From Plicaturopsis crispa FD-325 SS-3 (Eukaryota > Basidiomycota > Agaricomycetes > Amylocorticiales > Amylocorticiaceae), in the NCBI GenBank assembly GCA_000827205.1, contig KN832556.1, forward strand, positions 1,051,198 to 1,115,197: a stretch of 64,000 nt of DNA, given 5' to 3'. A program made the translations under genes and the position numbers. Of this stretch, positions 13,548-34,332 are shown one piece after another; the stretch's first letter is position 1; every line of letters begins with the position of its first letter. The notes beneath the pieces were generated by a model. The model was given only the letters and a program-made list of their open reading frames with translations, was not told the origin of the DNA and searched no databases.

Positions 13548-14601
13548 ATGGTATGTTTTCCTCCTTTTTATATCATTAATTTTGCTGATCTATACAGGCT
13601 CCTCGAGGACTGTCAGCAGAAGATAAACGCGTCAAACTTCTCGAGATTTTCCATGAAAGCGTTAGTCTGACGCTTCACCATCCTTATGTTAGTTCACTGA
13701 TCATGAACTCTACTAGAAAGACTACTACCAGGTACTTGACACGCTGCAAAACGCTCAAATATTGTTTTGAACATCATGATTAGCTCAAGGAACTGGAAAA
13801 GTTGGGACCAAAGCTGAAGGGTATCGGTGAGTGCCGAACAATGCACGAGTGTTAGCTCATCGTCTCACGCGTTATATCAGTTTCGCAGTCTGTCAAAGAA
13901 GTCTTGCAGTCTCTAGTAGACGACGATCTCGTCCGTGTCGACAAAATCGGGTCGTCCAATTGTACGTCGCGTCGCGTTGCTGCATGTCGTTCGTCACTGA
14001 TCAGTGCATCAAGTCTTCTGGAGTTTTCCGTCAGAACGTGGTGCTATTGTTCGACTCCTTCACACTGTGCCCTTTCCTTCACGTCTGAAGCATTGGTTTT
14101 TATAGCTTCAAAATCGACTCAACACGGTGAAAGAGACGCAGGCCTCTAACCAGGCCCAGCTAGAAGAGATCCAAGCATCCATCATCACCGAAAAGGCCAA
14201 CCGCATAGATAGCGTATGCCCATCTGTATGTCTTCCTCGTGTGCATATTTGACGCGCTATGACTCGCAGCCCAAACGCACGGACGCCCTCGCGAACCTCT
14301 CGGTGCTGAAGGCACAGCTCGACGTGCTCGACAAGGAACTGGGCGAGTACGGCGCCTGCGACCCCGCGCGCGTCGAGGAGCAGAAGCGGGGCGTGACCAT
14401 CGCGCAAGAGGCTGCCATCCGCTGGACGGGTGCGTATCTATCTCTCGCTATCCACCGCTTCATTTCTGCGTTTAACCCGATAGCACTGGTGCAGACAATT
14501 ACGGTGTACTTCTGTCCCATTTCACGCGGCAGAACGGCGTCGACCCGGAGGATATCCGCAAATTCCTGGGCGTGCCGGAGGATTACGAGGATATCTGCTG
14601 A
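13548..14601 (+). CDS. MND1: Meiotic recombination protein Mnd1
   Basis: Partner of Hop2; the heterodimer stimulates Dmc1/Rad51 strand exchange in meiosis. Nine exons: 13548-13550, 13598-13660, 13717-13731, 13784-13826, 13881-13961, 14014-14048, 14106-14213, 14270-14429, 14495-14601; 204 residues, the usual size. The winged-helix N-terminus reads APRGLSAEDKRVKLLEIF, then YQLKELEKLGPKLKGI and VSQSVKEVLQSLVDDDLV, then FFWSFPS. A coiled coil follows (LNTVKETQASNQAQLEEI onward), and the leucine-zipper-like end closes with FLGVPEDYEDI. The start codon is alone in its exon and joins Ala-Pro-Arg after a 47-bp intron. The donor of intron 6 (GTTCG) is the least certain border. Confidence 0.92.
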
Positions 14602-14988: not shown

Positions 14989-16374
14989 CTAAACTTTACA
15001 CGCCTTCAAGCTGCCGTCCACAATGCATGGCCTCAGAGGGCTAAGAATCACGAGAGCACACACAATCGACGAGTGAGTAGAATAGCCCAATGACGAGACA
15101 TTCCAGCTTACCCAGCAGAAGCCAGTTGGCGCTTGAACCCCTCTTGTTGCAAAACCTGGCATTCAAGGTCGCCCGGGGCGCATGGCAGGAGGTTCGGTGC
15201 ACGTCTGTTCGGGGGGAACATAAACGCTCGGAAATACACAGGCGCCGCAGGGACTCACTTGTCGGCCATGACGGAGCGAAGTTGGCCGCTGGACCCTGCT
15301 TGTTGGAAAACTTGACACCTAAGGTCCCCGGTAGGACACACCGGGTCGAGATTACGTGCATGTTCACTGCCCGTGCTGGAAAAAGAAAATCAGGTAAAAC
15401 GGTAAATGCGATGACGGGGTGACTCACGAGCCAAACAGAGACTCCTCGAGGATGGAAGCGGAGGGGTGAAGCTGCCTTTTGGCCTCGGATACTTGCGAGA
15501 ATTTTTCGCAGAAAACGTCTCCGGGGGCACATGGAGGTGGCGGAGGCCGGGAAACGCAGCTTGGACCATTGCAAAGTATAGGTGCACGCCTTTGAGGGGG
15601 GAGGGTAAGTATGCTACACCTATATCTAGCGCCATAAACTCACCCGCTAAGTGCGCTGTTCCTAAGATCAAGTGCCGGAGTCGGTCAGAAGGAACATGAT
15701 AAATGCATCCATGACATGCTAACTCACACTCCCAAGAGTTTTGCAACCTCTTGATTAGAGAGTTGTCTACACGGTACACGGAATGAGCACCAAGAGACAC
15801 GGAGGAAGTGGAATGACTTCACCGCTTGTCTCCTGTGCGAGCGAGTTCGCATATGTTGTCTCCAGGGGCACAAGGAGGCTTTGGCGGCTGCGTATCACAG
15901 TCCGGACCACCGCATATGAATTCCCGTTTATCTTCAGGCGAGCTGTAGCCGGGAGTCAGCAAGTAGCGTCATACGCGGCACCAGCCTAGTTCGATTGAGC
16001 TTACATGTCTACCAAGGACGGGCTTCCATCCACGGCGAGAGGTCTGTATCGCGTGATGTCAATCAAAAACTCGAAGGCAGACATCAATAGATATGCGTAC
16101 CGTCCGGCCTGAGTGTGGCGCTTGGCCTCGCTCACATGGGAGAACAAGTTACAGAATGCGTCACCGGGAGCGCACGACGGCCTTGGTGCACTGACACAAG
16201 TCTCTCCTGCTGCGCATTCTATGGGCTCACGTCTGTGTAAGACGTGATTCGTTAGGTTTGATGAAGACGGCGGTTTCCGTGTCTCAGGTTCACTGACCTT
16301 CCAAGAGGTGCAGAGAGGGCCCCCGGAAGGGCAAGAAAAATGGCAAGCGTCACGAAGGTGGGAGTGAAATGCAT
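14989..16374 (-). CDS. Secreted Kex2-processed repeat precursor, cysteine-rich
   Basis: Ten exons join in frame: 16374-16298, 16232-16101, 16043-16005, 15942-15823, 15766-15728, 15661-15644, 15589-15428, 15375-15259, 15204-15112, 15040-14989; 282 residues. It opens with a clear signal peptide (MHFTPTFVTLAIFL, then Ala-Leu-Ser-Ala) and is then divided by Lys-Arg pairs, the cleavage site of the Golgi protease Kex2. Four modules carry the string Cys-Ala-Pro-Gly-Asp-x-x-Cys and a fifth a variant (Cys-Pro-Thr-Gly-Asp-Leu-Arg-Cys). Most have one or two further cysteines upstream, and two end Val-Ser-Glu-Ala-Lys-Arg. Secretion and release of several disulfide-bonded peptides are inferred. I know no named family for the module. 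Its leader has a probable intron and a TATA box. Confidence 0.75.
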
Positions 16375-16418: not shown

Positions 16419-16487
16419 CTGCCCGTCGAGAAGACACAACAGTGAGCGGAGACATAGCAAGTAGCAAAACCTTGGTAAGAAACTCAC
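16419..16487 (-). other. Probable leader intron of Kex2 precursor gene
   Basis: On the minus strand GTGAGT at 16487 and an AG at 16419 bracket 69 bp between the TATA box and the start codon. The second Kex2-type gene shows the same arrangement. This is inferred from splice-site shape only. Confidence 0.4.
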
Positions 16488-16580
16488 TGGTATCCAGTAC
16501 CTGAAAAATCGGAAGTGAAGGAATGAACGTGGAAGCGAATTGAGCTCAGCTGAAGAGACAAGATGGCGCATATAGTTAGT

Positions 16581-17572: not shown

Positions 17573-19819
17573 ATGTTGCATTTCCTGTCGCTCGTCCTGT
17601 CTCTGACTGCAAGTCGCGTCCTAGCTGCAGCTCCCGAGTCCAAATCGCGTTGTTCGTCTTTCAAGCTTAGCAACTTGTCGGACACGGCCTTGACTGCCGC
17701 GACCTACTATGCCCACGGTGATTTGGTCAACTTGACGAGCTCCGGTGGATATGTCACTTCAAACGATCTAGTGTCGTTCTGCAGTATGTCCATTTGCCGT
17801 AGTAATCACTGACATTGCCGCACTAATTCTGGAATAAACAGGATTGCAACTGACGATTACCACGAACAGTACAGCGAACAGCTCTGCACATACAGAGCTA
17901 TGGCTTCCAGATGCGTGGAACTCGCGTCTTCTCGGCGTCGGGAACGGAGGATTCAGCGGTGGCGTCGTGTACTCGTCCCTCTCCTACGAGGGTATCCAGG
18001 TAAGCTCCTACTGATACTGCCACGCCAGTCTGTATTGATTACTGACTGGCATTTCAGAACGGCTTCGCCAGCTTCAGTACGGACACTGGTCATACAAGCT
18101 CGAGCTCCGACGGATCTTGGGCTCTGGGCAACCCGAATGCTATCGTTGATTTTGGTACGCGCGCGATGCACATGAGCCTTGTGTCCGCGAAGGAGATCAC
18201 GAGGCAATTCTACGGCGAAGCTGCACACCACAGCTACTATCTCGGCTGCAGCACGGGTGGTCGACAAGGGCTGAAAGAAATCCAGACGCATCCGGAGTCT
18301 TTTGACGGGTGAGTCGATATCTTGCAATGGCGCCCAATCTCGACTAAGTAACTGTGAGCTAACAATACCACCTGAACGTTAGGGTTGTCGTTGGCGCTCC
18401 TGCTAATTGGATGTCACATTTACTGCCATGGTAAATGAATGTTCGCAAACAGGAGGGTCATCTCTAATTCCCATCTCGTAGGGAAATTAAGGCTCGCCTT
18501 AATGTGGAACCTGTCAATTCTTCACGGTGGATAACCGCTTCTCAATGGTCTGCCATCCACGACGAAGTCTTGAAGCAGTGCGGTAAGCGGTACTTTTCCT
18601 ATCACACAAACAGATGGAATCCCTGAACGAGGTCCCCCAGACGCTGTCGACGGTGTGTCCGACGGGATCATCTCAAACCCAAGACAATGCAAGTAAGGAC
18701 CTCCCTAAGTCAACAGCTCATGCAATATTTTGACGCGGGGTACAAGCTTCCGGCCCGAAGCTTTGACTTGTCGCCCGAGCGCAAACACGTCGGCGTGCCT
18801 CAATCTCGACCAGCTCGCAGCTCTGCACAAGATCTACAGGGACTACGTCGAAGCAAACAACACCTGGATCTTCTCACGCTACGAGCCCGGTGGTGAACTG
18901 GTGTATTCATCTGCGGCGGGTGTATTTGGGCCCACTGTCTTCCAAATCGGCATTGATTATTACCGATACCTTGTTCTCAAGTCAGTGAGCCCCCTCTAGT
19001 TGTTTCAACTGCCTCTGACGCCTTCAATTGCAGCGACTCATCATGGGACCCGTCTACTCTGGATTACGCAACCATACAGAAGGGTATTGAGGTTAACCCA
19101 GGCCAGATGGATGTGCGTCATCTCTTCAGTACCGTTCAATGATTCGTTCTAACGAATGGCCGTCTGTAATGCACAGGCTGTGAGTCCAAATATCACTGGG
19201 TTTGCCTCCCGCGGGGGGAAGCTGCTGCACTACGTTGGCTGGGCCGATCAGCTCATCGCTCCAGGAAACTCGGTCAGTCCTTTTTGGGTACAATCAAAGC
19301 TCCCACCCCAATTCACAATCATTAAATAGCTGCTATACTACGAATCTGTCGTCGCCAACACGTTGCACTCCTCTACACTCGATCCGGACTCATTCTACAG
19401 ACTGTTCACTGTCCCTGGGATGATTCATTGCTCTGGCGGTGACGGAGCGAATGCCTTCGGAGGCACGGGTCAGGCGGCCTACGGGATGCCCCCAGGGCGC
19501 GCCGACGCATCCCACGATATCATGCGTGCCATGGTTAAATGGGTCGAGCACGACACTGCGCCGAAGGAGCTGATCGCGACAAAATACAACGGAGGTGAGC
19601 ATTTCAGAAGCATGAGCCATTGTCTGCGATATTGACGTTTACAAGACAACGCTACCCTTGGTACCGCATTTACCAGGAAACTATGCATGGTCAGTCTACA
19701 AACCCCTTCCTGAGGCTTCCTTCGCCAATATCTACTGACCTCTCAATATATAGTACCCCAAAAATGCCGTATTTCGCGGCGGCGACAATACCACGGCGGA
19801 CAGCTTTGAATGTGAATAA
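17573..19819 (+). CDS. Secreted tannase / feruloyl esterase
   Basis: Secreted serine esterase that hydrolyses ester bonds of gallic or ferulic acid in plant polymers. Twelve exons: 17573-17783, 17842-17999, 18058-18308, 18383-18430, 18482-18582, 18614-18692, 18747-18980, 19034-19112, 19177-19272, 19330-19594, 19646-19689, 19754-19819; 543 residues. A signal peptide (MLHFLSLVLSL) is followed by the family fold. The nucleophile lies in YYLGCSTGGRQG, the acid in YVGWADQLIAPGNS and the base in PGMIHCSGGDG, so the Cys-Ser...Asp...His-Cys pattern typical of this family is intact. The calcium-loop region (Asp-Ala-Val-Asp-Gly-Val-x-Asp-Gly-Ile) is also present. Tannase versus feruloyl esterase activity cannot be told from sequence. 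Confidence 0.9.
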
Positions 19820-25959: not shown

Positions 25960-27657
25960 TTACTCTTCATCCTCGTCGCTGTCCTCCTGCTCCTGCAAGA
26001 ACTGCACGAAAACAGACCAAATCAGCTCATCGTTCCCCGTGGCGTTCTGGAAAAAGGGGATACACACCTTGACGAGCGGCTCGGTGGCCTTCAGGAAGTG
26101 CTGCCGCCCCTGCGGTTTCGAGCCCTTCTGGTGCCAATATATTATAGCCTGATCGGAAATACAATCCTTGTTATACAACACCTGGCCAAGGAGCATCAAC
26201 ATCAGTACATAACGGACAACGTGATGTAACGTACTTTCAGGATCTGGGGGAACGCCTTAATGATGCGTGTGTCCTCGTAGCAATACACCTGCACGACGTT
26301 GATGAGCGCAACCTCGGTCTTCGCGCCATTGCAGAACGGCTCGAGGATTGGGGCGTATTGCTGTCGTGTTTGCGAATGCGGTTAGCAAAATGAACGGACT
26401 GACGGATGAGTTTAGAAAGACGGTGAGACGAACGCACCCCGACTTCCCGAAGGGCTAGCGCCTCAATCTGATCCGGCCGCGAGCTCCAGTCAACAGACGC
26501 CATAAGCCCCGCCCAGATGCACTGCACGAGCTCGTTCTCCGGCAGCGGCTGCTCCTCCTGCCGACTCTTGATCGCCGCGATAATCTGCACAGATTCTCAG
26601 TAGGACGCCCCACCAGGGGTGTTTCGTGGCTCACCTGCTCGGGGGACTCTCCGCGCTCACAGAGCTCAGTGAGGTCTCGCACAATGCCTTCCTTGACCAC
26701 AGCATACTGCTTCTTCGCCCACCAGTCCGCAACCTGGGGAAGGCCCTCCTTCCGGAAATGCTCCTCGAGCGATTTGCCCTCGCGCTTCCCGGGCGGAAAG
26801 AACGCGAGGAGGTCTTTGATGCCGCCCTTTTTCAGGGTGCTCGAGAGGTGGTCCATCGTCTGGTCGACGAGGTACGAGCGGAAGATGATAGTGATGACGC
26901 TGACCGAGACATCTAGTACCGCGGCCGCATCAGCTCGCGTCGGCTTGCACCCCGAGGCACGCACCGTTCTTAACGAGATGGTCTTTCGTGAGTGCGGAGA
27001 GACACGATGCGTTCGCAAGGCCCTGCGATATGAGAAGGCCCGTGGCAATTGCTAGCTTATCCTTCTGCGCAGACGACCAGCGATGGATATACTGCAAGAG
27101 TCCCGGAAGCGCGGACTCCTCTAGTGGTTTCTGGAGATATTTATACCTGAAGCGCACACTGAGTCTTGATATCAAGGATCACGGCAGTGAGAGCGACATA
27201 CCTCCGGATGAGTTTATTGAGCACCTCGATGTATTTCTTTATGTCGTCCACATCGGCCGGCTCCTTCGAGTTGAAGATCGTGAACGGGGAGACGGGCGCG
27301 CCGTCATCAATGTAGCTCCCTCCGGGCTGGATAAGTCCGCCGACGAGTATGATCTCGAACAGCGCATCGGCATATTTGAGAAATTCGAGTGTTCCGCCAG
27401 CCTGTACTAGTTTCGTCGCGAACGAATCAAAGTCGCCTTCGGGTACGGTTTCGAGGTGTTTGTATAGCTGGTCTCTAAAGACTATGCACAAACGCGTTGG
27501 TAACAGGTATACACTGGCATCGAATGCGCCAAGATGTATGGAGGAAAACGCATTTACCGGTGGGCTCGTGCTTTGCGTGCGCCTTGACGGCACCTTTCCT
27601 GGCTTTGATTCGGACCCCCTGCAGCGAAGGCTTTGAAGCAGCTGATTGCTGAGACAT
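25960..27657 (-). CDS. BZW1: eIF5-mimic protein (BZW/5MP), W2 domain
   Basis: Cytosolic translation regulator that copies the eIF5 C-terminal W2 (HEAT) domain and competes for eIF2, lowering initiation at poor start sites. Eight exons: 27657-27558, 27481-27202, 27146-26965, 26912-26635, 26584-26438, 26360-26235, 26181-26068, 26001-25960; 422 residues, matching the metazoan length (about 419). The order matches BZW1/2: KPSLQGVRIKARKG at the N-terminus, LEFLKYADALFEIILVGGLI, KLIRRYKYLQKPLEE, DKLAIATGLLISQGLANAS, YLVDQTMDHLSSTLKKGGI, then the W2 domain with NELVQCIWAGLMASVDWSSR, and an acidic end (EQEDSDEDEE). No leucine zipper is evident. Confidence 0.92.
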
Positions 27658-28598
27658 CCACAGGTTTCCAGACAATCGAAAAGAGCGGATACGAAAGAGA
27701 AAAGGAAAGAGGCCGGCTTTCGTGCGTTGCGTCGTCGTCGAGATCAGGTTTCGTTTTATCGTAAATCCGTGAATGGACTGCACCGGCACATTCCGGTGGC
27801 GCACTACATAACTACTTACTCGTTCTTACTAGATCAAGTTTGCACTTTCTAAAGAGTCAGACGTGAGTTCCACATCGTCTTCAAGTACAAAGAAAACATC
27901 TTCAGGACAGCAACTGTGCCACAAGCCATTTTAATCCATTCGTTCTGTAAGTTTTTAGGGGATCTGCTCCGAAATCCAGAACGTGACTTCTCCATGGGCC
28001 ATGGCGCTCGCGCACTGCCCAGCGTCCAAACGCTCGCCCGACTACCCTCATATTCTCGGACACCTCGGAAAAGACGCAGCGGGATGATACCTAGGGAGAC
28101 CTAGGGAAGCGAGAAATGTCTCGAGAGTATGTGAAAATGTGAGCCTGCCAACGCGACACATCCATAATATTGCTAAGGAAAGAATATCAGCATCTTTCAC
28201 CAGCTCAGGCCGCGCTGAGCGCCGAGGCTTCTGGCGTTTGAATATGCCCACTTGTCTCATGAAACGCTTCAAATGCCTTCCATCGCGAATTGTCGTCGCA
28301 ATATGCAGTGCTTTTGCTAATGGGGCGGGTTCTGTGTGCATCCGGGACTAGAACACCTGTCTACACGTCCGTGCAGCCCGAACGCGCCGCCCACGCCCAA
28401 CATAGGACGCCTGCGAGACGTTTAAAAGCGGGTCCATCTCATACTATTCTGCAGCTGCGCTCACCACATCCTCCTACACCATCTCCCAATTAATCCAGGT
28501 ACCGGTTACCAGTGAGTTACATGTAACCTCTTTCCCGGCGTTGGCTAATGCATGCCATAGATTTTATCTATAGTAACGAATCCATCACCCTCATCACG
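27658..28598. other. Divergent promoter region with probable leader intron
   Basis: About 0.94 kb lies between BZW1 (-) and the second Kex2 precursor gene (+). A probable leader intron (GTGAGT at 28512 to AG at 28560) and an AT-rich TTTAAAA near 28419 lie upstream of the latter. Other frames here look like shadows. Confidence 0.45.
28512..28560 (+). other. Probable leader intron of second Kex2 precursor gene
   Basis: GTGAGT at 28512 and AG at 28560 bracket 49 bp just upstream of the ATG at 28599. It parallels the leader intron of the related gene at 15-16.4 kb. Inferred from splice-site shape. Confidence 0.4.
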
Positions 28599-29262
28599 AT
28601 GCACTTTACCTCCCCACTGTCCTTCGTTACCCTCGCCCTCTCCCTCTCCGGGACCCTCGCCGCACCATTGTCCGTCGCCCCAGGCTCCGAGATGTACGCC
28701 GGGGTGGCTCGCACACCCTTGGAGGCGGGACCAGACTTTCAACTCCCGAATTCCGTCTTCATGCCGCGGCCCCCTGGTTGTGACAATGGCACAGTCACTG
28801 GCATAGAGTGTGCCCTCGAGCTCAAACGCGAGCCAATAGAAGCTGCGCCGGGCTCCGTGTACTCCCCCATTGACTGCGGCGACGGAATCCCTGGCGCAAT
28901 GTGTTCAAAAAAACGCGAGCCAATAGAAGCTGAGCCGCGCTCCGTGCCCTCGATTCCGGGCGTCATCACCCTCCAACCCACCTCCTGCACTGGCGGATTC
29001 GGCAACGGCACAGTGTTCACAGTTCCGTGCGGTGATCTCGGCTTCCAGGAGGTAAAGCGCTCGTTAATCGAGAACTTGTCTCCCTCCGACATCCAGACGA
29101 TCCTCGATAAGCTCCAGAACCACAAGTGAGTTCGATTAAGGCTGCCTGCCTGTGGTCGTGTTTCTGACTGGCCTTGCTTCCACCAGGCGCCGCGGGTTCT
29201 TCCACAGCAAATTCCCGGTCTACCCCGAAGGAACCCTTCTTCCCCAGGGAGGAGCTGACTGA
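28599..29262 (+). CDS. Second secreted Kex2-processed precursor
   Basis: Two exons: 28599-29125 and 29187-29262; 200 residues. The signal peptide (MHFTSPLSFVTLALSLSG, cleaving near Leu-Ala-Ala) closely resembles that of the precursor at 15-16.4 kb. Four Lys-Arg sites cut the mature part; the string Lys-Arg-Glu-Pro-Ile-Glu-Ala occurs twice, each followed by a peptide of about 20-50 residues containing two cysteines and Gly-Asp or Gly-Asn. The last site (Lys-Arg-Arg) leaves a C-terminal peptide RGFFHSKFPVYPEGTLLPQG. Glu-Pro/Glu-Ala after Kex2 sites recalls the dipeptidyl-peptidase spacers of yeast alpha-factor. The start at 28599 is preferred over the upstream ATG at 28548, which would spoil the signal peptide. 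Function unknown. Confidence 0.8.
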
Positions 29263-32752: not shown

Positions 32753-34332
32753 TTATGCTGAAGGGTTGCTCTTGAACCGTATGATGAGCACTGTGACGTT
32801 GTCCGTGGTATGCTGGCTCAGCGCGTATTTGAGGAGTTTCTCGCTCGCGTACTGCGCATCCTCGATCTCGCGCACGAGGTCAACCGCCGCCTGATCGCTC
32901 GCAACATCCCAAAGCTGCACGAAGCTCAGTGTACGCAGCAACACGATATAGAAGGAGGACTCACCCCATCGCACGCCAGGATCAAGAACTCGTCCTCACT
33001 GCACAGCTCGGTCTCCGTGGTGTACGGTGCGCCCACCACGAAATCCTTCATAGACGAATCGCCCAAGCTCCGCGTCACCGCGAGCACGCCATTCACCCTT
33101 CCGCTCATCACAAAACCCCCCGCGTCCGTAATCCGCTTCGCCTCCTGCTTGTCCGTCCCCTTATGGTCGTACGTCAGCCGCACAGCCTTGCCGTTCCGAC
33201 ACAGCACCCCGCGCGCGTCGCCCGCATTCGCCGTATACAGCACGCGCCGCGCGTTACCGGGCGGCGAAACGATGACGCCACCCTGCGCAGTATGCACGAG
33301 GTGCCGCGGATCGGGGGTTCCTGGCGACGCGGATCGGGGCGTAGACGGGCCGGAGGAGGATCCGCCTCCCCCAAGACTCTTCAGTGCGTGTTTTATCCGG
33401 CTCGTGCTGCTCTTCTTTTTCTTCTTGGGCCGGTCGTCCTCGCCGGAGACGGGGCTGTGGCTTTCCGACCCGCTGTCGACGTTGGCGCTGTCCGCGTCGC
33501 CAATCGTGGGCGATTCGACGCGCGGGGCATCGGGGATCGCGTGCAGGAAGGATTGCTGCCCGTCTGCGTCCTCGACGCGGAGGAACGCGGTCACGGCCGT
33601 GCAGCCCGAGTGGATCTTCCCTTCGGACTCTTCGCACATCTGAGATAAGCGCAGGTCGACGTTGTGGAACGTCTGGTTGAGCACATCAGGGATCGGCAAT
33701 GCAGGTGAGGCGCGTAGGGATTCGAGGAGTGTCTGCATAGGAGTGTCAGACTGAAGAGTAGCCGGGGCAAGATCTGCCGAGCTCACCTCGTGGAAATGAC
33801 CGCCACACCATTCCGCCGCATGTTTTCCAGCATGTCCATCGAATACAGCAAAGAAACCTTGACCCCGCACACCTGCGAAATCGACAACGAAGGAATGTGC
33901 ATCTTCCATGGTTCTTCGCGTGCCCTTGTCTTCTGAGACGCCAATCTGGTAGGCGGCATTGTTGAGCGCGTGGCGGTTCAGGATCTACGGCTACGTCAGA
34001 GCATATACGCAGCGCGATGCAAAGACACGACGCACGCCATGAGTCTCCACGCCCTCCGCGACTGTGATGGTTTTGGAACGTGCATTTGGAGAGTCAGAGA
34101 ATCGGGGTGTGGCCAATGGCAAGTCGAGGGCGGCGGGGTTCCCGCCATCGCTAATAGTAAGAGAGAGCAGTCAGATATGCCTTCACGTAGGCTGAATTGG
34201 TTACACACCGAGTAGGTTGTGCTGAAGCGGGCGAGGTCGCTATTGTGAGGCTATGTAGTTAGCTCACTACTGTCGACCGGAGCTTGTGGACTGAAACCTA
34301 CGGCTCTTTTCAACTTGCGATTCCACGGGCAT
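32753..34332 (-). CDS. PP2C-type Ser/Thr phosphatase (Ptc1-like)
   Basis: Metal-dependent PPM phosphatase. Six exons: 34332-34302, 34239-34209, 34150-34036, 33984-33787, 33732-32965, 32914-32753; 434 residues. The catalytic fold is complete: EDKGTRRTMEDAHSF and GFFAVFDGHAGKHAA (metal-binding Asp of the DGHAG loop), SGCTAVTAF, YTANAGDARGVL, SLGDSSMKDFVVG, FLILACDGLWDVAS and TTDNVTVLIIRF (last metal ligand). Between TAVTAF and YTANAGD there is an insert of about 100 residues that is acidic, then has five lysines in a row, then Gly/Ser/Pro-rich. Yeast Ptc1 lacks such an insert. Probably acts on MAP-kinase or similar pathways; that is inference from the family. Confidence 0.9.

What the first reader, a model, noticed from the sequence alone, without database searches (positions are those of the whole stretch)
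14989..16374. Undescribed-looking Kex2-released peptide precursor with repeated Cys-Ala-Pro-Gly-Asp-x-x-Cys modules
Ten exons assemble, without a frame error, into a secreted protein divided by Lys-Arg pairs. Four modules carry Cys-Ala-Pro-Gly-Asp-x-x-Cys and a fifth a close variant. The paired cysteines suggest one small disulfide loop per released peptide. Multi-copy Kex2 precursors in fungi include alpha-type pheromones, dikaritin RiPP precursors and hyphal-surface repellents, but none I know carries this module. It could encode a new family of secreted signalling, surface or defence peptides.
Basis: partly seen in the sequence, partly recalled or inferred. Interest (0 to 1): 0.78.

Follow-up and report, generated by a model that had tools for sequence, protein, structure and literature searches.

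The report
Fungal precursor of cysteine-looped secreted peptides
A fungal gene appears to encode a secreted string of small cysteine-bearing peptides meant to be cut apart by the Kex2 protease, and a sister gene 12 kb away keeps the same leader but carries different peptides, so this looks like a new member of a known class of peptide precursors whose job is unknown.

Summary
Window 16374-14989 (minus) assembles into ten exons and a 282-aa secreted protein with seven dibasic sites and five C-x-x-G-D-x-x-C modules, four of them CAPGDxxC. Permutation controls, codon-position counts and the rarity of the motif in the genome speak against chance.

Corrections: three modules carry four cysteines, not two. 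Two module boundaries are single Arg. All nine introns are phase 2 and outside the cysteine spans, so any one internal exon can be skipped in frame. Intron 2 and the 18-nt exon 6 are uncertain.

Main addition: a sister gene at 28599-29262 (plus) shares a 5'-UTR motif and the signal peptide with it, and no third copy of either pattern exists in 33.2 Mb. Its cysteine loops differ.

[quoted passage not shown] No UstYa match lies on the contig and gene A has no Tyr, so a dikaritin is unlikely. No STE2 receptor was found, without a positive control. Processing and function are inferred. Other fungal genomes and published KEP tables could not be searched. Novelty: new member of a known kind.

The parts
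16482..16501 (-). Gene A 5'-UTR motif GGTACYGGWTACCAGTGAGT, probably the donor end of a 5'-UTR intron
   Evidence: Only two places in the own genome at up to 2 mismatches, reversed control 0; pattern was made from A and B. Intron reading by eye.
16298..16374 (-). Gene A exon 1: signal peptide MHFTPTFVTLAIFLALPGALSA
   Evidence: hydrophobic stretch; no signal-peptide program was available
16101..16232 (-). Gene A exon 2: module 1 (REPIECAAGETC...CAPGDAFC...EAKR), CAPGDxxC at 16151-16174
16005..16043 (-). Gene A exon 3: spacer; the intron before it (2) is open in frame and uncertain
15823..15942 (-). Gene A exon 4: module 2 (REFICGGPDC...CAPGDNIC...GDKR), CAPGDxxC at 15849-15872
15728..15766 (-). 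Gene A exon 5: spacer starting QL after KR
15644..15661 (-). Gene A exon 6: 18-nt exon, uncertain
15428..15589 (-). Gene A exon 7: module 3 (RAPILCNGPSC...CAPGDVFC...EAKR) and QL spacer, CAPGDxxC at 15508-15531
15259..15375 (-). Gene A exon 8: module 4, variant CPTGDLRC at 15315-15338
15112..15204 (-). Gene A exon 9: module 5 (RAPNLLPCAPGDLEC...FKR), CAPGDxxC at 15159-15182
14989..15040 (-). Gene A exon 10: C-terminal tail with a further Cys pair and stop codon
28498..28517 (+). Gene B 5'-UTR motif, same as gene A
28599..29125 (+). Gene B exon 1: leader MHFTSPLSFVTLALSLSGTLAA, three Cys pairs, KREPIEA repeat
29187..29262 (+). Gene B exon 2: RR site and tail; intron phase 2 inside a KRR site

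Best explanation
Gene A, with its sister gene B, encodes a KEX2-processed repeat protein (KEP). The signal peptide sends it into the secretory pathway. The Cys pairs of each module are oxidised to small disulfide loops: two per module in modules 1-3, one in modules 4 and 5. Kexin cuts after the dibasic sites and probably after the single Arg before modules 3 and 4. A Kex1-like carboxypeptidase trims the basic residues. A Ste13-like dipeptidyl peptidase could remove the EP or AP that starts modules 1, 3 and 5, and spacers starting with Gln-Leu could become pyroglutamyl peptides. The peptides are released outside the cell, where I think they most likely act on the biotic surroundings rather than as mating pheromones. 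Shown from sequence: precursor anatomy, repeats, sister gene, kexin-type and DPP IV-type matches in the genome. Inferred: cleavage, disulfides, trimming, release and role.
For: Signal-peptide-like leader, seven dibasic sites. KR enrichment: 5 of 200,000 shuffles for A and 7 of 100,000 for B. Five of seven A fragments similar. Introns spare the Cys spans (0.03 by random placement) and four of nine split an Arg or the Lys of a KR (0.004), tests chosen after seeing the gene. One P_proprotein match and one DPPIV_N locus in three pieces. Sister gene with homologous 5' end. In agaricomycetes, KEP peptides with single-Arg cleavage, pyroglutamate and STE13-type trimming have been reported (PMC9769878, parts 1-4 of 9 read).
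Against: No transcript, peptide or homologue in another species. The repeats are diverged (28-68% identity to module 1), unlike the nearly identical repeats of classical KEPs. Only three of five modules have the XP start. Gene B has only two clear repeats. Mature parts of A and B are not clearly similar (59 of 1000 shuffles reach the score; full length 10 of 1000). Codon preference of A is weak. The module model has mean pLDDT 64.4 and says little. The P_proprotein search gave only one match, where C. cinerea is reported to have three KEX2 genes.
Confidence: 0.75

Rival explanations
1. Alpha-pheromone-like signalling KEP: the modules act as self-recognition peptides through a G-protein-coupled receptor, as STE13-type KEPs in Basidiomycota have been suggested to do.
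For: CAPGDxxC has six residues between its Cys and a Pro-Gly, like RFCHLPGQGCSK of Xylona heveae; QSWGGCGGRGTPCW of the basidiomycete Trichosporon oleaginosus has the same spacing. EP/AP starts on three of five modules. PMC6339444 proposes hormone-like roles for such KEPs.
Against: No STE2 match (no positive control). No Trp. Modules 1-3 have four Cys. Cys spacing in gene B is 9, 8 and 13 residues (counted).
Confidence: 0.2
2. Uncleaved or partly cleaved structural repeat protein of the hyphal surface, comparable to Rep1 of Ustilago maydis.
For: Long peptides (22-57 aa between dibasic sites), Pro-rich linkers and abundant Cys.
Against: Dibasic sites enriched and placed between modules; modules divergent rather than uniform; no amyloid or hydrophobin-like Pfam match.
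Confidence: 0.1
3. Dikaritin-type RiPP precursor whose cores are cyclised by UstYa enzymes.
For: Secreted Kex2 precursor; UstYa genes exist in the genome (six exon-level matches on C1, C4, C10).
Against: None of the six UstYa matches is on contig C3; gene A has no Tyr, and known UstYa products are cyclised through Tyr (PMC7329392 passage).
Confidence: 0.03
4. Not a gene: a lucky assembly of open stretches, or a decaying pseudogene.
For: Many tiny exons, one of 18 nt; weak codon preference; no homologue could be sought in other fungi.
Against: Third-position bias of differences between repeats, motif count against controls, 5' end shared with gene B, uniform phase-2 introns.
Confidence: 0.05

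Closest known systems
KEX2-processed repeat proteins (KEPs) of fungi (PMC6339444, PMC7329392, PMC9769878)
   Same: Signal peptide, similar fragments separated by dibasic sites, several peptides per precursor, STE13-like XP starts on some, Gln starts on others
   Different: Cysteine-paired modules of 22-35 aa, strongly diverged from each other, one module per symmetrical phase-2 exon. The agaricomycete peptides named in the parts of PMC9769878 that I read are linear and lack Cys
Ascomycete alpha-type pheromone precursors with two Cys
   Same: Kex2 sites, XP starts on three modules, six residues between the Cys with a Pro-Gly (compare RFCHLPGQGCSK)
   Different: No Trp, four Cys in three modules, no STE2 receptor found (uncontrolled), sister gene with other spacings
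Dikaritin precursors (ustiloxin type)
   Same: Secreted Kex2 precursor
   Different: No Tyr, no UstYa match on the contig
Conopeptide-style families, conserved signal with changed cysteine cores (recalled, from no call)
   Same: Genes A and B keep 5'-UTR and leader but differ in cysteine cores
   Different: Several peptides per precursor; only two members known; no toxicity or target known; analogy, not homology

Membership tests
KEP (definition of PMC6339444) | N-terminal signal peptide, no other membrane segment | tested here: inconclusive
   Hydrophobic leader with a plausible cleavage site; SignalP and TMHMM were not available
[quoted passage not shown]
   Gene A: eight fragments. Gene B: six pieces, one of them a single R
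KEP (definition of PMC6339444) | At least three similar fragments | tested here: met
   Gene A: five of seven fragments of 10 aa or more linked at E <= 5e-4, by blastp, not by the paper's FIMO step. Gene B: only one pair (E 1e-4), so B does not meet it
KEP (in the working sense) | Peptides really released by kexin | not testable with these tools
   Needs peptide mass spectrometry; a P_proprotein match exists in the genome
Dikaritin RiPP precursor | UstYa (DUF3328) gene nearby | tested here: not met
   None of six matches is on contig C3
Dikaritin RiPP precursor | Tyr in the core peptides | tested here: not met
   No Tyr in the 282 aa of gene A; gene B has three Tyr
Alpha-type pheromone precursor | STE13 dipeptides (XA/XP) after the Kex2 sites | tested here: inconclusive
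   EP, AP, AP at modules 1, 3, 5; EF and NL at modules 2 and 4
Alpha-type pheromone precursor | STE2-type receptor in the genome | tested here: inconclusive
   No match, but the search had no positive control; STE3 rings 18 times

The most novel reading that the evidence does not exclude
Genes A and B are the first seen members of a leader-anchored family of disulfide-looped peptide precursors: 5'-UTR and signal peptide are kept while the cysteine framework is replaced and, in A, multiplied by tandem duplication of symmetrical phase-2 exons, one peptide per exon, so that exon skipping could change the peptide mixture without breaking the frame.
Probability: 0.25. Interest if true: 0.65.

Novelty: new member of a known kind. 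Interest (0 to 1): 0.42.

Why it matters
Most KEP-derived peptides have no known function, and six kep knock-outs in C. cinerea showed no apparent phenotype (PMC9769878). A cysteine-looped KEP with a leader-sharing neighbour offers foldable peptides to synthesise and test, and a concrete model for how such precursors grow by exon duplication and change their cores behind a conserved leader.

Tried and rejected
Paralogues: protein searches of the own genome with A and B found only themselves (the tool scores only its best candidates). A broad C-x-x-G-D-x-x-C pattern gave 174 matches against 136 for the reversed control; only the first part of the list (C1 to C8) was shown, and in that part, by eye, only gene A has three or more on one strand within 2 kb. 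CAPGD alone gave 18 matches against 5 for the control, four of them in gene A. The C18 CAPGDQGC match is by eye in another frame of a MYND-like gene, a name recalled. Scans of IMG/VR viral contigs with A and with B found no relative. No fungal genome collection was available.

Structure: the AlphaFold model of module 1, aligned with four other modules, has mean pLDDT 64.4 and pTM 0.27, so I ran no fold search. PDB profile matches have E >= 1.2 and are taken as chance. Pfam DUF4688 is below its cut-off.

dS could not be computed for two of three module pairs (saturated); the third gave dN 0.15, dS 0.73. I used codon-position counts instead.

Literature: searches for the strings pcapgd, capgdxxc, ccapgd found 0 papers, which says little because such strings sit in figures and supplements. 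Searches for Cys-rich Kex2 precursors in basidiomycetes listed no paper that by its title or abstract describes this module.

Full report
Observation. I reassembled the gene on the minus strand. Ten exons (16374-16298, 16232-16101, 16043-16005, 15942-15823, 15766-15728, 15661-15644, 15589-15428, 15375-15259, 15204-15112, 15040-14989) give 849 nt and 282 aa, with GT/AG at all nine introns, which are 52-71 nt long. The protein has 18 Cys, no Tyr and no Trp. Its mature part has six KR and one RR; 5 of 200,000 shuffles have six KR or more, and 621 of 200,000 reach the observed number of dibasic pairs of any kind.

Chance. In the 33.2-Mb genome the DNA pattern for CAPGDxxC matches five times: four in this gene and once on C18, by eye in another frame of an unrelated gene; the reversed pattern matches nowhere. 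The looser C-x-x-G-D-x-x-C pattern matches 174 times (reversed control 136); five of these lie in this gene within about 1.0 kb (list shown only in part). The five cores differ at codon positions 1, 2 and 3 by 31, 18 and 57 pairwise differences; the four copies of CAPGD use different synonymous codons. Kex2 fragments A1, A3, A4, A5 and A6 are linked by blastp at E <= 5e-4 (best 1.6e-13), and no pair reaches 1e-3 in any of 200 shuffled sets. Codon preference is only weakly in favour (0.026 against at most 0.008 for the five other readings).

Modules 1, 2 and 3 have a second Cys pair ahead of CAPGDxxC (CAAGETC, CGGPDC, CNGPSC), then a Pro-rich stretch. The boundaries before module 3 (SGR) and module 4 (HAR) are monobasic, so strict KR/RR cutting gives fragments of 57 and 56 residues. 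All nine introns are phase 2. None falls inside a Cys span (0.03 by random placement), and four split an Arg or the Lys of a Lys-Arg (0.004); these tests were chosen after seeing the gene. Removing any single internal exon leaves an open frame. Retaining any single intron but the second puts a stop at residue 40 to 266; intron 2 is open and adds 19 residues. This is the pattern expected of growth by duplication of symmetrical exons, each bringing a peptide (inference).

Sister gene. A codon-model scan of the window showed a second leader beginning MHFT. Gene B lies at 28599-29125 and 29187-29262 on the plus strand, 200 aa, with one phase-2 intron inside a KRR site. A and B are divergent, their start codons 12.2 kb apart. 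B has four KR (7 of 100,000 shuffles reach that) and the repeat KREPIEA(A/E)P(G/R)SV; codon preference favours its frame (0.133 against at most 0.005). Its Cys pairs have 9, 8 and 13 residues between them (counted). Gene A starts its first peptide with the same REPIE. A 20-base 5'-UTR motif, GGTACYGGWTACCAGTGAGT, occurs at exactly two places in the genome at up to two mismatches, 16482-16501 (-) and 28498-28517 (+), control 0. The start ATGCAYTTYAC-N(3-15)-TTYGT also occurs only at A and B, control 0. Both patterns were made from A and B, so those two hits are by construction; the finding is that there is no third. Independently, the leader alignment scores 57 with 0 of 1000 shuffles as high, and the upstream DNA scores 39 with 0 of 300 shuffles as high. 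Against this, mature parts are only weakly alike (59 of 1000 shuffles as high) and the full-length score is reached by 10 of 1000. So the 5' ends are taken as homologous, and the cores have diverged or been replaced.

Machinery. The genome gives one P_proprotein match (C7), one DPPIV_N locus in three pieces (C13), six UstYa matches on C1, C4 and C10, 18 STE3 matches on C19 and C21 and no STE2 match, the last without a positive control. Counts are lower bounds by the tool's own note. Several STE3 receptors without STE2 fit a basidiomycete (established knowledge); the species was not identified.

Neighbours. Of ten window segments given to Pfam, four matched at E <= 0.01: Tannase (19330-19632), 5MP1/2 HEAT (two segments in 26458-27743) and PP2C (32929-33984). 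Six matched nothing, among them gene B, the first exon region of the tannase gene and a segment of the gene next to A. This was a sample of the window, not a full annotation; nothing in it suggests a biosynthetic cluster.

Comparison with what is known. KEPs are a described class: a signal peptide and similar fragments separated by Kex2 sites (PMC6339444: sections 8, 9, 15 and passages; PMC7329392: section 6 part 1 of 2 and passages; PMC9769878: parts 1-4 of 9 and passages). Gene A meets the fragment rule of PMC6339444 (eight fragments, at least four needed) and the similarity rule (at least three), the latter by blastp rather than FIMO. Gene B has one similar pair only and does not meet it. 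[quoted passage not shown] PMC9769878 reports peptide ends after single Arg, pyroglutamate on N-terminal Gln, and likely STE13-type trimming, which fit the SGR/HAR boundaries, the QL spacers and the EP/AP starts here. The peptides named in the parts I read are linear and lack Cys.

Mechanism and role. Most likely: secretion, disulfide formation, kexin cutting, trimming and release of looped peptides. The role is open. I prefer action on the biotic surroundings, because the 5' end is kept while the cores differ between A and B, and because six kep knock-outs in C. cinerea were silent in pure culture. Both arguments are indirect. Alpha-pheromone-like signalling is the interesting rival: the CAPGDxxC ring has the same spacing and a Pro-Gly like RFCHLPGQGCSK. 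Against it, the sister gene's spacings differ, only three of five modules have the XP start, and no STE2 was found.

Verdict. A real gene and very probably a KEP; a new member of a known kind with a cysteine-paired, exon-per-peptide build and a leader-sharing sister. Whether its type is already in published KEP tables could not be checked.

Noticed in passing
13558-14601 (+): Convergent neighbour of gene A that looks like the meiotic protein Mnd1 (name recalled; the one segment scanned had no Pfam match).
   Followed up: no
17573-19800 (+), approximate: Tannase/feruloyl esterase gene between A and B (PF07519 on one exon) with its own signal-peptide-like start.
   Followed up: partly
G000 C10:439447-443881: Two UstYa matches on opposite strands within 4.4 kb: a possible dikaritin-type cluster elsewhere in this genome.
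   Followed up: no
G000 C21:298104-311359 and C19:291117-300362: STE3 receptor matches clustered at two places, as expected of a basidiomycete mating-type region.
   Followed up: no
about 214 bases before the ATG of A and 178 before that of B: TATA-like boxes (TATATAAG, TTTAAAAG), each followed at a similar distance by CCATCT, so the two genes may share a core promoter.
   Followed up: partly
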